Below the pieces are notes generated by a model that searched no databases, was not told the DNA's origin, and saw nothing but the letters and a program-made list of their open reading frames with translations. Of a stretch of DNA of 50,529 bases, positions 3,029-43,889 are shown piece by piece (position 1 is the first letter of the stretch; every line of letters starts with the position of its first letter). The stretch is from Burkholderiales bacterium. Its GTDB lineage: Bacteria > Pseudomonadota > Gammaproteobacteria > Burkholderiales > Casimicrobiaceae. The DNA is taken from assembly GCA_025927765.1 (NCBI GenBank), contig JAICKU010000020.1:1-50529 (forward strand). Reading direction: 5' to 3'. The translations under genes and the position numbers were made by a program.

Positions 3029-4711
3029 TCACGAGAGGCCATCACGCGCTCCCACGGCGCCTTCGCTCCCCTCGCCCTTCTGGCCTGCGCTCGGGTTCGG
3101 ATGCGGGCCTTCGGGCGGCTCGTACTGATACGGCGGCGCCGTCACGATCGGGATCGACGCGAAATTGTCGACGGGCGGTGGCGACGACGTCTGCCATTCG
3201 AGCCCGGTCGCGCCCCACGGATTCGCGGTCGCACGCGGCCCGTACTTGAGCGACCACAGCAGGTAGAGGAGCGGCAGCAGGTAGCCGACGGCCAGCACCG
3301 ACGCGCCCGCCGACGACAGTACGTTCAGCACCTGGAACTCGGGCGGGTATTCGTGATACCGGCGCGGCATGCCGAGGTAGCCCAGTACGAACTGCGGGAA
3401 GAACGTCAGGTTGAAGCCGATGAACACGACGATCGCCGCGAAGCGCGCCCAGCGGTCGGAGTACATGCGCCCGGTGATCTTCGGCCACCAGAAATGGATG
3501 GCGCCGAGGAACGCCATCACCGAGCCGCCCACCATGATGTAGTGGAAATGCGCGATGACGAAGTAGGTGTCGTGCAGGTGCACGTCGAGCGCGAGCGACG
3601 CCAGGAAGAGCCCGGTCATGCCCCCCACGGTGAAGAGACCGACGAAGCCCAGCAGATAGAGCATCGGCGCCTCGAAGTGGATCGACCCCTTGTAGAGCGT
3701 CGCCGTCCAGTTGAACACCTTGATCGCGGAAGGAATGGCGACGAGGAACGACAGGATCGAGAACACGATGCTCGAGTAGACCGACGTCCCGGCGACGAAC
3801 ATGTGATGGCCCCAGACGAGGAAGCCGATCACCGCGATCGCGAGCACCGCGAACGCCATCGAGCGGTACGCGAACACGTTCTTCCGCGCGAAGCAGGTGA
3901 TGATCTCGCTCGCCACCCCCATCGCCGGCAGGATCATCACGTACACGGCGGGGTGCGAATAGAACCAGAACAGGTGCTGGAAGAGCAGGGGATCGCCGCC
4001 GAGCGCCGGGTCGAACACGCCCACGCCGGCGAAGCGCTCGATCGCGAGCAGGAACAGCGTCATCGCGAGCACCGGCGTCGCCAGCACGAAGATGATCGCC
4101 GTCGCGTACATCGACCAGATGAATAGCGGCAGGCGGAACCACGTCATGCCGGGCGCGCGCATCTTGTGGATCGTCACGATGAAGTTGATGCCGGTGAGGA
4201 TCGACGAAAAGCCGACGATGAACACGCCGGCGGCGGCGGCGATCACGTGCGTGTTCGAGAACATCGTCGAGTACGGCGTGTAGAACGTCCACCCGGTGTC
4301 GACGCCACCGGCGATCAGTGCGCCGACCGTGAACAGGCCGCCGCCGATGTACAGGTACCAGCTCGCGAGGTTGAGCCGCGGGAACGCCATGTCGCGCGCG
4401 CCGATCATCAGCGGCACGAGGAAGTTGCCGAGCGTCGACGGGATCGACGGGATCAGGAAGAACCACACCATGATCACGCCGTGCATCGTGAAGAGCTTGT
4501 TGTACGTCTCGGCGCTGACGAAATCGCCGGTCGGCGTGACGAGGTTGAGGCGGATCAGCGACGCGGCGACGCCCCCCACGAAGAAGAACATCGTGATCGA
4601 GATCGTGTAGAGGATCGCGATGCGCTTGTGGTCGACGCTCGACAGCCACGACCACAGGCTGAAGCCTTCGTCGAGGTAGTTGCCGCGCACCGGCAGCATC
4701 AATGTGCTCAC
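3029..4711 (-). CDS. ctaD: caa3-type cytochrome c oxidase subunit I (A2 family)
   Basis: The catalytic 560-residue, roughly 12-helix subunit that reduces O2 and pumps protons. Visible ligands are the heme a His in [11 protein letters not shown], the CuB His with the cross-linkable Tyr in [13 protein letters not shown], the CuB His pair in [10 protein letters not shown], and the two heme His in HFHYIMVGG. The motif is YSHPAVY, not the GHPEVY of mitochondrial-like A1 oxidases. The proton-channel glutamate is therefore missing and replaced by the Tyr-Ser pair that defines A2 oxidases such as those of Thermus and Rhodothermus. The last 25 or so residues are a Pro/Gly/Glu-rich tail. Translation starts at GTG, inside the stop codon of a short upstream ORF (4708-4776) that also carries its GGAGGG ribosome site. 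Confidence 0.95.
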
Positions 4712-4776
4712 CTGGCTTCCCTCCGCGCTTCGCGCTGCGGGGCCGATTCGCCCCCGGGGTGGTCCTTCGTGCTCAT
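4708..4776 (-). repeat. Intergenic repeat with coupled mini-ORF before ctaD (element D)
   Basis: Between subunits II and I lies a GC-rich stretch that reads as a 22-residue ORF ([20 protein letters not shown] plus AR), whose TGA overlaps the GTG of ctaD. About 36 bases of it, starting at GCGAATCGGCCCCGCAGCGC, match the sequence between nuoB and nuoC (31424-31460) at almost every base. The same stretch supplies the GGAGGG that serves ctaD. I read it as a copy of a dispersed intergenic element that remains open and coupled. Whether the peptide itself matters is unknown, and it could simply be a spacer. Confidence 0.6.
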
Positions 4777-4792
4777 CGATTCGGCTCCGTGG

Positions 4793-42337: not shown

Positions 42338-43809
42338 GCACGCCTTATCTTTCGCTCGCGATCTGGGTCCCGATCGTCGCCGGCATCGTCGTCCTCTTCT
42401 TCTCGCGCGAGCGCGATGCGAACTTCGCGCGCTGGCTCGCGCTGATCGGTGCGGTCGCGGGCTTTCTCGTCACGATCCCGCTGTACCTGTACTTCGACAC
42501 CACGACGCCGGCGATGCAGTTCGTCGAGTACGCCGACTGGATTCCGCGCTTCGACATCCACTACCACCTCGGCGTCGACGGCATCTCGGTGCTGTTCGTG
42601 ATCCTGAACAGCTTCGTGACGGTCCTCGTCGTGTGGGCGGGCTGGGAAGTGATCCAGGTGCGCGTCGCGCAGTACATGGCCGCGTTCCTGATCATGTCGG
42701 GGCTCATGAATGCCGTGTTCTCGGCGCTCGACGGCATCCTGTTCTACCTCGTGTTCGAGGCGATGCTGATCCCGATGTACCTGATCATCGGCGTGTGGGG
42801 CGGGCCGAACCGCGTCTACGCGGCGCTCAAGTTCTTCCTGTACACGATTTTCGGCTCGCTCCTGATGCTGGTCGCGCTGATCTACCTCTACAGCGTGTCG
42901 GAGACGTTCGAGATCCTCGCGTGGTACAAGGTGCCGCTCGCACTGTCGACGCAGATCCTGCTGTGGGTCGCGTTCTTCCTCGCGTTCGCGGTCAAGGTGC
43001 CGATGTGGCCGATCCACACGTGGCTGCCCGACGCGCACGTCGAGGCACCCACCGGCGGCTCGGTCGTCCTCGCGGCGATCACGCTGAAGATCGGCGCGTA
43101 CGGCTTCGTGCGCTTCATTCTGCCGATCCTCCCCGACGCGTCGCGCTACCTGTCCGGGTTCGTGATCGCGCTGTCGCTGATCGCGATCGTCTACATCGGC
43201 TTCGTCGCGATCGTGCAGGCCGACATGAAGAAGCTCGTCGCCTATTCTTCGATCTCGCACATGGGCTTCGTCACGCTGGGCTTCTTCATGTTCAGCGTGC
43301 TCGGCATCGAAGGCGGGCTCGCGCAGATGCTGTCGCACGGCTTCGTGTCGGCGGCGATGTTCCTGTGCATCGGCGTCATGTACGACCGCGTGCACAGCCG
43401 CCAGATCACGGACTACGGCGGCGTCGTCAACACGATGCCGAAGTTCGCCGCCTTCATGATGCTGTTCGCGATGGCCAACGCGGGGCTCCCGGGCACCTCC
43501 GGTTTCGTCGGCGAGTTCCTCGTGATCCTGGCCGCGGTCAAGGTCAATTTCTGGATCGGCTTCGGCGCCGCCGTCAGCCTGATCCTGGGCGCCGCCTATA
43601 CGCTGTGGATGTACAAGCGCGTGATCTTCGGCGAGGTCGCCAACGAGAACGTCGCGAAGATGAAGGACATCGGCAGCCGCGAGTTCTGGCTCCTCGGCAT
43701 CATCGCGCTCGCCGTGCTCTTCATGGGCGTGTGGCCGAAGCCCTTCATCGACGTCATGCACACCTCCGTCACCGAGCTTCTGACCGTCGTCGGACGTTCC
43801 AAGCTCTAA
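42334..43809 (+). CDS. nuoM: NADH-quinone oxidoreductase subunit M
   Basis: A 491-residue antiporter-like subunit. The helix-5 Glu is in YLVFEAMLIPMYLIIGVWGG, the helix-7 Lys in AFAVKVPMWPIHTWLPDAHV EAPTGGSV, and KKLVAYSSISHMGFV follows. There is no ATG near the start. TTG at 42334 overlaps the nuoL stop (TTGA) and gives the usual N terminus (STPYLSLAIWVP), with GGTGGGG upstream; GTG at 42322 is the alternative and adds four residues. It ends two bases before a repeat element that forms a mini-ORF towards nuoN. Confidence 0.96.
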   Translation: MSTPYLSLAIWVPIVAGIVVLFFSRERDANFARWLALIGAVAGFLVTIPLYLYFDTTTPAMQFVEYADWIPRFDIHYHLGVDGISVLFVILNSFVTVLVVWAGWEVIQVRVAQYMAAFLIMSGLMNAVFSALDGILFYLVFEAMLIPMYLIIGVWGGPNRVYAALKFFLYTIFGSLLMLVALIYLYSVSETFEILAWYKVPLALSTQILLWVAFFLAFAVKVPMWPIHTWLPDAHVEAPTGGSVVLAAITLKIGAYGFVRFILPILPDASRYLSGFVIALSLIAIVYIGFVAIVQADMKKLVAYSSISHMGFVTLGFFMFSVLGIEGGLAQMLSHGFVSAAMFLCIGVMYDRVHSRQITDYGGVVNTMPKFAAFMMLFAMANAGLPGTSGFVGEFLVILAAVKVNFWIGFGAAVSLILGAAYTLWMYKRVIFGEVANENVAKMKDIGSREFWLLGIIALAVLFMGVWPKPFIDVMHTSVTELLTVVGRSKL

Positions 43810-43811
43810 CG

Positions 43812-43889
43812 ATGGCCCCCCCACGCCCGCTCCGCTCGCTGCCCCGCCAGGGGGCGGACCAGTCGCTCGGGGCGGCCCTGCGCGACTGA
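43812..43889 (+). repeat. Intergenic repeat with mini-ORF between nuoM and nuoN (element B)
   Basis: The 73 bp at 43817-43889 repeat the element between actB and actC (10704-10775, inverted) with four substitutions and one extra base. The frame MAPPRPLRSLPRQGADQSLG AALRD begins two bases after the nuoM stop and ends seven bases before the nuoN ATG. Its C-terminal end corresponds to that of the other copy (GADPSLGAAFRD). As before it fills the gap without leaving untranslated space. Copies in two operons of unrelated respiratory complexes speak for a mobile or duplicated extragenic element. Confidence 0.75.

What the first reader, a model, noticed from the sequence alone, without database searches (positions are those of the whole stretch)
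4708..43889. Repeats inside respiratory operons that form stop/start-coupled mini-ORFs and carry ribosome sites
Five gaps in the act-cox and nuo operons (4708-4776, 10704-10784, 31410-31466, 37603-37725, 43812-43889) are filled by GC-rich elements. Two pairs are clearly repeats: actB/actC with nuoM/nuoN (about 73 bp, five differences) and ctaD with nuoB/nuoC (about 36 bp nearly identical). Each reads as an 18-40 codon frame whose ends overlap or nearly touch both neighbouring genes, and in three cases the element supplies the GGAGGG or AAGGAGG of the next gene. Inserted DNA would normally break translational coupling; these copies keep it. They may be a self-spreading element that survives because it hands ribosomes on, or linkers that set subunit ratios.
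Basis: partly seen in the sequence, partly recalled or inferred. Interest (0 to 1): 0.7.

Follow-up and report, generated by a model that had tools for sequence, protein, structure and literature searches.

The report
Mobile repeats that keep genes coupled
Short DNA repeats have spread into the joints between neighbouring genes of this bacterium, sitting where one gene's stop meets the next gene's start and carrying stop and start signals at their own ends, so that the genes can probably still be translated one after the other; a comparable kind of element is known from mycobacteria.

Summary
All five gap elements are copies of genome-wide repeats: family I (actB/actC, nuoM/nuoN), II (ctaD, nuoB/nuoC), III (nuoG/nuoH). 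In the own genome 25 of 27 family II copies lie directly before an in-frame start of a co-directional gene, 19 of 27 with GGAGG in ribosome-site position (control starts 5 of 114); 14 weaker matches were set aside as chance-like, 13 of them inside genes. In related contigs the element's TGA is the upstream gene's stop in 22 of 35 copies (control 16 of 451), and the downstream gene is co-directional in 35 of 35. Of 93 copies, 51 end their mini-frame in an RTGA/TTGA and 24 run in phase into the next gene. Relatives have empty joints at these sites, several being plain 4-nt ATGA/GTGA overlaps. The frame stays open though the peptide drifts; hairpins covary. Best reading: non-autonomous mobile elements inserted at start/stop joints that preserve translation, working like mycobacterial MIRUs, in beta-proteobacteria. 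The mover is unknown; the genus's Y1 transposases go with another repeat. Ratio-setting linkers and small subunits are not supported.

The parts
4708..4776 (-). E1, family II element between coxB and ctaD/coxA; mini-[31 protein letters not shown] ribosome site, ends in the GTGA start of ctaD
   Evidence: empty 4-nt ATGA overlap at coxB/coxA in G013 and G014
10704..10784 (-). E2, family I element between actB and actC; mini-ORF VKGPPTLAPLAAPQGADPSLGAAFRD*, no ribosome site of its own
   Evidence: empty 4-nt GTGA overlap at actB/actC in G013, 4-nt gap in G014
31410..31466 (+). E3, shortened family II element between nuoB and nuoC; ATGA at both ends, GGAGGG ribosome site
   Evidence: no gap over 30 nt in 16 of 16 same-family loci with both genes in hand, G014 reads ...cgcTGATGAGC
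37603..37725 (+). E4, family III element between nuoG and nuoH; 40-codon mini-ORF, AAGGAGG ribosome site, ends in the GTGA start of nuoH
   Evidence: gap over 30 nt at the same joint in 6 of 23 same-family loci, two of them (G012, G017) family III-like by eye
43812..43889 (+). E5, family I element between nuoM and nuoN; mini-ORF MAPPRPLRSLPRQGADQSLGAALRD*
   Evidence: no gap over 30 nt in 21 of 21 same-family loci, e.g. TGACATG in G012, G017, G018, G005, G008

Best explanation
The elements are short (57-123 bp in the window), non-autonomous mobile repeats of at least three kinds that insert at start codons, often at an RTGA (ATGA/GTGA) where a gene's start overlaps the stop of the gene before, and that carry RTGA (families II, III) or ATGA...TGA(C)ATG (family I) at their ends. 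The upstream gene keeps a stop at the element's left end, the downstream gene keeps a start at the right end, and a short open frame spans the element, so ribosomes can pass by termination-reinitiation twice instead of once; family II, and E4 of family III, also carry a Shine-Dalgarno site for the next gene. In other copies the frame runs in phase into the next gene as an N-terminal extension. This makes insertions inside important operons tolerable. Shown: repeat families, patchy presence, empty sites, orientation, stop/start geometry, open frame, hairpin covariation. Inferred: that the mini-frames are translated, that coupling is what is selected, and that movement is by insertion at RTGA; the moving enzyme is unknown.
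For: Copy number in the own genome. Downstream gene co-directional in 27 of 27 family II and 5 of 5 family III copies looked at. In-frame start within -10..+25 nt of the match end in 25 of 27 family II copies (21 of 23 at E<=0.01), GGAGG before it in 19 of 27 (17 of 23) versus 5 of 114 control starts; random positions have a co-directional start within -3..+20 in 141 of 13080. Element TGA = upstream stop in 22 of 35 versus 16 of 451, downstream gene co-directional 35 of 35. Of 93 distinct copies with the left end, the mini-frame ends in RTGA/TTGA in 51, runs in phase into a called gene in 24, runs off the stretch in 3, does neither in 15. Of 54 units with RTGA at both ends by my rule, lengths fit a 4-nt overlap in 42, an in-phase run in 10, neither in 2. 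No stop among 186 single-base codon changes (3.6% expected) although the peptide drifts, 37 synonymous to 149 not. Hairpins: 92.5% of cells paired, 21 cells changed on both sides, reached by 0 of 500 shuffles; slid versions 16-54%. Empty sites: nuoB/C 16 of 16, nuoM/N 21 of 21; coxB/coxA a 4-nt ATGA overlap in both relatives that have the operon, actB/actC GTGA in one of two; dapF, bioD, pheT joints. Tandem arrays with RTGA at unit borders. Family I in 13 further genomes of the same order, 12 of 19 copies there (+,+), and between two co-directional genes of Azoarcus sp. KH32C.
Against: No mobilising enzyme is linked. Some empty sites are not RTGA (nuoM/N TGACATG; actB/C in G014 a 4-nt gap; nuoB/C TGATG). 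Duplication of the target is not clean everywhere, since RTGA is both target and element end. Family I is looser: of 30 own matches 21 are (+,+), 5 (-,-), 2 (+,-), 2 cut by contig ends, an in-frame start is near in 19 of 30 and none has GGAGG; in other genomes of the order 3 of 19 are (-,-). Family III: in-frame start near the match end in only 2 of 5, GGAGG in 1, partly because matches stop short of the right end. By the gene caller's own start choice exactly 4 nt of overlap is seen in 21 of 93 rows. Six of 27 own and 5 of 35 related family II copies have a divergent upstream gene, so they sit at starts but not inside an operon. Of 41 distinct family II places fetched I set 14 weak ones (E 0.03-0.75) aside by eye; 13 of these lie inside genes and 1 near a start, so with them the count near starts is 26 of 41. 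One related copy (L196) was flagged inside a called gene. Copies share descent, so counts are not independent. Rows were picked by a left-end motif that includes TGA, and needs AGG before the right RTGA. The hairpin layout was drawn by eye from the same sequences, and the number of pair types is not above shuffles (140 of 500). No expression data.
Confidence: 0.75

Rival explanations
1. REP elements moved by a RAYT (Y1/HUH transposase): palindromes moved through single-strand DNA into a fixed tetranucleotide.
For: Hairpins covary; the family II consensus shows no terminal inverted repeats by eye; the genus has Y1 transposases (10 of 22 genomes, own included); insertion next to a fixed tetranucleotide would explain the fixed orientation to RTGA (recalled from IS200/IS605 biology).
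Against: Y1_Tnp is not found in G013, G014 and G020, which carry 19, 13 and 4 family II matches (these drafts are 95, 84 and 86% complete), while five genomes without family II matches have it (G006, G008, G012, G015, G019). 9 of 12 Y1 loci fetched carry GGGTCAGA/TCTGACCC and 0 of 12 an exact GGGCCGCCCC core of families I/II. That ordinary REPs lack such start/stop geometry is recalled.
Confidence: 0.2
2. Conserved regulatory linkers that set subunit ratios in respiratory operons by hairpins, RNA processing or reinitiation.
For: GC-rich hairpins between operon genes; an effect on translation of the next gene is possible.
Against: Joints are empty in relatives or hold other elements; copies also lie before dapF, bioD and pheT (families confirmed) and other genes named by eye; four of the five window elements fold no better than shuffles, z -0.03 to -0.93, E2 alone z -2.58.
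Confidence: 0.07
3. Genuine conserved small proteins (accessory subunits).
For: Open frames of 18-40 codons set against the neighbours' stops and starts.
Against: The same peptide family stands next to many unrelated genes; third codon positions vary least and nonsynonymous changes dominate; orthologous joints lack them.
Confidence: 0.03
4. No preference in insertion: random insertion, with selection removing every copy not placed at a start/stop joint.
For: Gives the same end picture if selection is strong; 31 of 238 co-directional neighbours in the sampled stretches overlap by 4 nt anyway.
Against: Neutral intergenic places away from starts should then hold copies, yet 21 of 23 family II copies at E<=0.01 are at a start.
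Confidence: 0.2

Closest known systems
Mycobacterial interspersed repetitive units (MIRU)
   Same: Short mobile-looking repeats that insert at start codons so that an inner ORF is coupled to the next gene with -4 nt spacing (passage of PMC12548453); 40-100 bp, 41 loci in M. tuberculosis H37Rv, tandem copies, a 279-358 bp gap between rnc and fpg in tubercle bacilli against 1-54 bp in other mycobacteria (passages of PMC2734929). The DTGA target and the proposal of transposition are recalled from Supply et al. 1997, which I did not see.
   Different: Sequence not compared; beta-proteobacteria instead of mycobacteria; several kinds of element, family I matching the reverse complement of family II; family II carries a strong ribosome site; part of the copies run in phase into the next gene.
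REP elements with RAYT transposases (PMC2817692, start of abstract in the listing)
   Same: Short palindromic repeats in many copies; the transposase family is present in the genus.
   Different: The Y1 genes go with another hairpin (GGGTCAGA); families I-III have stop/start ends and, family II above all, fixed orientation.
Rickettsia palindromic elements (passage in the MITE review PMC10969869)
   Same: Mobile palindromic repeats that keep reading frames open; some copies here run in phase into a gene.
   Different: Those are reported inside genes; these sit at gene joints and carry stop and start codons.

Membership tests
MIRU | short repeat unit dispersed at many loci, also in tandem arrays | tested here: met
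MIRU | lies between genes, oriented in the direction of translation | tested here: met
   family II; family I less strictly (21 of 30 (+,+))
MIRU | inner ORF coupled to the neighbours by a 4-nt stop/start overlap | tested here: met
   family II: 51 of 93 mini-frames end in RTGA/TTGA; E1, E3, E4 read directly; E2 and E5 only nearly touch the next start
MIRU | insertion at DTGA with that motif at both ends, shown by empty sites (recalled feature) | tested here: inconclusive
   native RTGA overlap at coxB/coxA in 2 of 2 relatives, actB/actC 1 of 2, dapF 9 of 17, bioD 5 of 18, pheT 3 of 19; not at nuoM/nuoN
MIRU | sequence related to the mycobacterial repeat | not tested
   no mycobacterial sequence was fetched; membership is therefore not claimed, only likeness of action
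REP/RAYT | same repeat flanks a RAYT gene | tested here: not met
   0 of 12 Y1 loci hold the exact 10-mer core of families I/II, 9 of 12 hold GGGTCAGA or TCTGACCC
REP/RAYT | palindromic hairpin kept by covariation | tested here: met
   family II only
MITE of a DDE transposon | terminal inverted repeats | tested here: inconclusive
   none seen by eye in the family II consensus (left TGAGCCCGAAGGG, right AGGGTAGTCCA); no formal test, families I and III not looked at
conserved small subunit | peptide present in orthologous operons and under protein-level selection | tested here: not met

The most novel reading that the evidence does not exclude
Beta-proteobacteria carry a diverse, still moving class of tiny elements that recognise start/stop overlaps themselves (RTGA on the coding strand, perhaps through single-strand DNA insertion), so that every insertion automatically turns one translational coupling into two; mycobacterial MIRUs would then be one of several independent inventions of the same trick, and operon joints a general niche for mobile DNA.
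Probability: 0.4. Interest if true: 0.8.

Novelty: new variant of a known kind. Interest (0 to 1): 0.62.

Why it matters
Inserted DNA in an operon should break coupling; here the insert brings stop and start signals that can rebuild it. How MIRUs move, and whether their coupling matters, is to my knowledge still open (recalled). A second set of such elements, with many copies, several kinds, empty sites in close relatives and a copy in a named organism (Azoarcus sp. KH32C), makes both questions testable outside mycobacteria, and warns that 20-40 codon frames between operon genes in these bacteria may be such elements rather than genes.

Tried and rejected
RAYT as the mover: tested by Y1_Tnp presence and by repeats around Y1 genes; does not fit. 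Conserved linker or peptide: rejected by empty sites and codon statistics. Rfam: no family reaches its threshold in the window. Strong folding as a signature: four of five window elements fold no better than shuffles. Another hairpin layout of family II fits less well (88.3% versus 92.5% of cells paired). Literature: searches listed no paper that by title and start of abstract describes such elements outside mycobacteria; only open-licence PMC text was searched, listings were capped, and the 1997 MIRU paper was not seen. PMC5248499 was opened for repeats in a beta-proteobacterium (passages) and does not bear on this. The order-wide count (14 of 300 genomes, own included) is a lower bound, since at most 3 candidates per genome were scored. 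One search misjudged genes that run off a stretch; one search replaces it. Rows left out: 14 weak family II places (see the Against line); 36 of 41 weaker matches to E4; 8 of 38 matches to E2 for which no stretch was fetched; 39 of 93 copies without a right RTGA; 3 of 46 units not passed to the aligner; at dapF one relative not fetched (G009) and one fetched but not read (G003), so 17 of 19; at bioD G017 not fetched (18 of 19); at pheT G329 not fetched (19 of 20). Of 5 plasmid records with a match I opened three; two have no annotated genes near the match.
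Full report
What is there. The window is contig C76 of a 4.0 Mb draft genome (148 contigs, 95.6% complete). Each of the five gaps holds a GC-rich element. E2 and E5 match over 76 columns (5 substitutions, 1 indel), E1 and E3 over 34 bp (2 differences); E4 is a third kind.

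Genome-wide. The own genome gave 38 matches to E2, 42 to E3, 41 to E1 and 41 to E4, of which five are clear. I called genes with a simple codon-usage caller trained on window genes and looked at 30 of the 38 family I matches, 27 of 41 distinct family II places fetched, and 5 family III copies. Downstream gene co-directional: family II 27 of 27, family III 5 of 5; family I 21 (+,+), 5 (-,-), 2 (+,-), 2 cut by contig ends. Two of the weak family I matches (L027, L030) are family II copies on the other strand. The reverse complement of family I matches family II: 28 of 43 family II units are hit by E2 and 39 of 43 by E5 in that sense, best 20 of 21 identical bases at the left end. An in-frame start of the next gene lies within -10..+25 nt of the match end in 25 of 27 family II, 19 of 30 family I and 2 of 5 family III matches; GGAGG precedes it in 19, 0 and 1 of these; ordinary starts 5 of 114. 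Random positions fall next to a co-directional start (-3..+20) in 141 of 13080 trials. The 14 family II places set aside are short matches with E 0.03-0.75; 13 lie inside genes, 1 near a start. All 23 distinct places at E<=0.01 were kept; of these 21 are at a start and 17 have GGAGG.

Stop and start at both ends. In these, 35 first units with enough flank were read: the element's TGA is the stop of the called upstream gene in 22 of 35, against 16 of 451 other TGAGC sites; the downstream gene is co-directional in 35 of 35, the upstream one in 30 of 35. Across 93 distinct copies with the left end (own genome, relatives, public contigs), the mini-frame ends in RTGA/TTGA within 140 nt in 51, runs in phase into a called gene in 24, off the stretch in 3, and does neither in 15. 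In 54 copies with a right RTGA by my rule the unit lengths are 65 (36 copies), 60 (7), 77 (5), 75 (2), 59, 64, 66, 79 (1 each): 42 fit a 4-nt overlap, 10 an in-phase run, 2 neither. The common mini-peptide is (M/V)S(P/A)KGRPE(G/R)E..AP(K/Q)R(E/V)ARRVVQ*. In 35 distinct 65-nt units no stop occurs among 186 single-base codon differences (3.6% expected), but 149 of them are nonsynonymous and third positions vary least: the frame is kept open, the peptide is not kept. Family I reads about MKRPPTLAPLAAPRGADRSLGAALRD* by eye and often ends ...GACTGA(C)ATG. It is found in 14 of 300 genomes of the window's order (own included; lower bound); of 19 copies read there 12 are (+,+), 3 (-,-), the rest cut or mixed. 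In Azoarcus sp. KH32C (Rhodocyclales in NCBI's taxonomy) a match of 68 bp lies 5 nt after the stop of a hybrid histidine kinase gene and 9 nt before a protein-glutamate methylesterase gene, all co-directional; its mini-frame was not checked.

Structure. On 40 distinct family II units, a hairpin with an outer and an inner stem and a second hairpin pair in 92.5% of cells, with 21 cells changed on both sides (shuffle mean 6.5, reached by 0 of 500) and slid versions at 16-54% paired; the number of pair types is not above shuffles. Column pair 7/25 is C-G in 20 rows, G-C in 12, A-U in 1, G-U in 1, unpaired in 6. Stability as such is not unusual.

Insertion history. In 23 same-family loci the nuoB/nuoC joint has no gap over 30 nt in 16 of 16 with both genes in hand and nuoM/nuoN in 21 of 21; nuoG/nuoH has one in 6 of 23, two of them family III-like by eye and others different. 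The relative with the most similar NuoH (G014) reads cgcTGATGAGCAGT at nuoB/nuoC where the window reads gggcATGAGCGCG...TTTCATGAGCAGC. actC was found in 2 of 21 other genus genomes: coxB/coxA is a plain 4-nt ATGA overlap in both, actB/actC a GTGA overlap in G013 and a 4-nt gap in G014. For three more own copies, before dapF, bioD and pheT (families confirmed), relatives were read: an in-frame start whose RTGA also ends a coding-like upstream frame (positive coding score) is seen in 9 of 17, 5 of 18 and 3 of 19; without asking for that score 10, 8 and 11. By eye, G009 and G013 hold family II-like inserts at bioD and G014 a longer related one, and G020 holds one at dapF. Family II is patchy: 10 of 61 genomes including the own one, 13-21 matches each in G002, G009, G013, G014, 1-4 in five others, none in 51. 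Tandem arrays have RTGA at unit borders. This is the picture of repeated gain at start/stop joints; gain by insertion is inferred from the empty sites.

How it moves. Unknown. Y1 transposases occur in 10 of 22 genus genomes but not in G013, G014 and G020, which have family II, and 9 of 12 Y1 loci carry another hairpin, none the family I/II core. A single-strand mechanism with RTGA as the cleavage tetranucleotide would explain the fixed orientation and RTGA at both ends, but that is inference from recalled IS200/IS605 biology.

Comparison with the known. A 2025 review states that MIRUs insert at start codons so that an inner ORF becomes coupled with a -4 nt spacing, probably limiting harm (PMC12548453, passage); another paper describes MIRUs as 40-100 bp repeats at 41 loci of M. 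tuberculosis and a 279-358 bp rnc-fpg gap in tubercle bacilli where other mycobacteria have 1-54 bp (PMC2734929, passages). The elements here act alike, but no sequence comparison was made, so I claim likeness, not membership. I found no report of such elements outside mycobacteria in the searches named under Tried and rejected.

Noticed in passing
window 27532-27660 and 49546-49636: Arrays of GGGTCAGA/TCTGACCC hairpins; the same motifs stand near Y1 (RAYT-type) transposase genes of the own genome (L246, L254) and of relatives, so these are probably ordinary REPs with their own RAYT.
   Followed up: partly
L111 (G014), nuoI/nuoJ joint: A different hairpin (GTCCCCGCGAGCGGCTTCGCCGCCGCGGGGAC) stands between two ATGA motifs where the window and G009 have a single ATGA: perhaps a further element kind with the same geometry.
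   Followed up: no
L132 (G006), L133 (G013), and L124 (G003), nuoC/nuoD joint: An insert that repeats the first bases of nuoD and then a hairpin with GCGTTCGCC/GGCGAACGC-like arms; looks like another element that duplicates the gene's start.
   Followed up: no
nuoD/nuoE joint of L111, L122, L123, L124, L125, L127, L131: A gap of 461-655 nt by the script's start choice, in some a possible extra gene, where the window genes overlap.
   Followed up: no
CALQLA02 records (L181, L182, L196, L198, L202, L209, L214): Genome titled Bordetella parapertussis; a contig length (114305) equals that of handle G024 C12, placed in the window's own family, so the title seems wrong.
   Followed up: partly
joint before bioD in own genome (L036), G009 (L295), G013 (L296), G014 (L280): Four genomes carry inserts, of differing sequence, at one joint: a possible hot spot for testing target choice.
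   Followed up: partly
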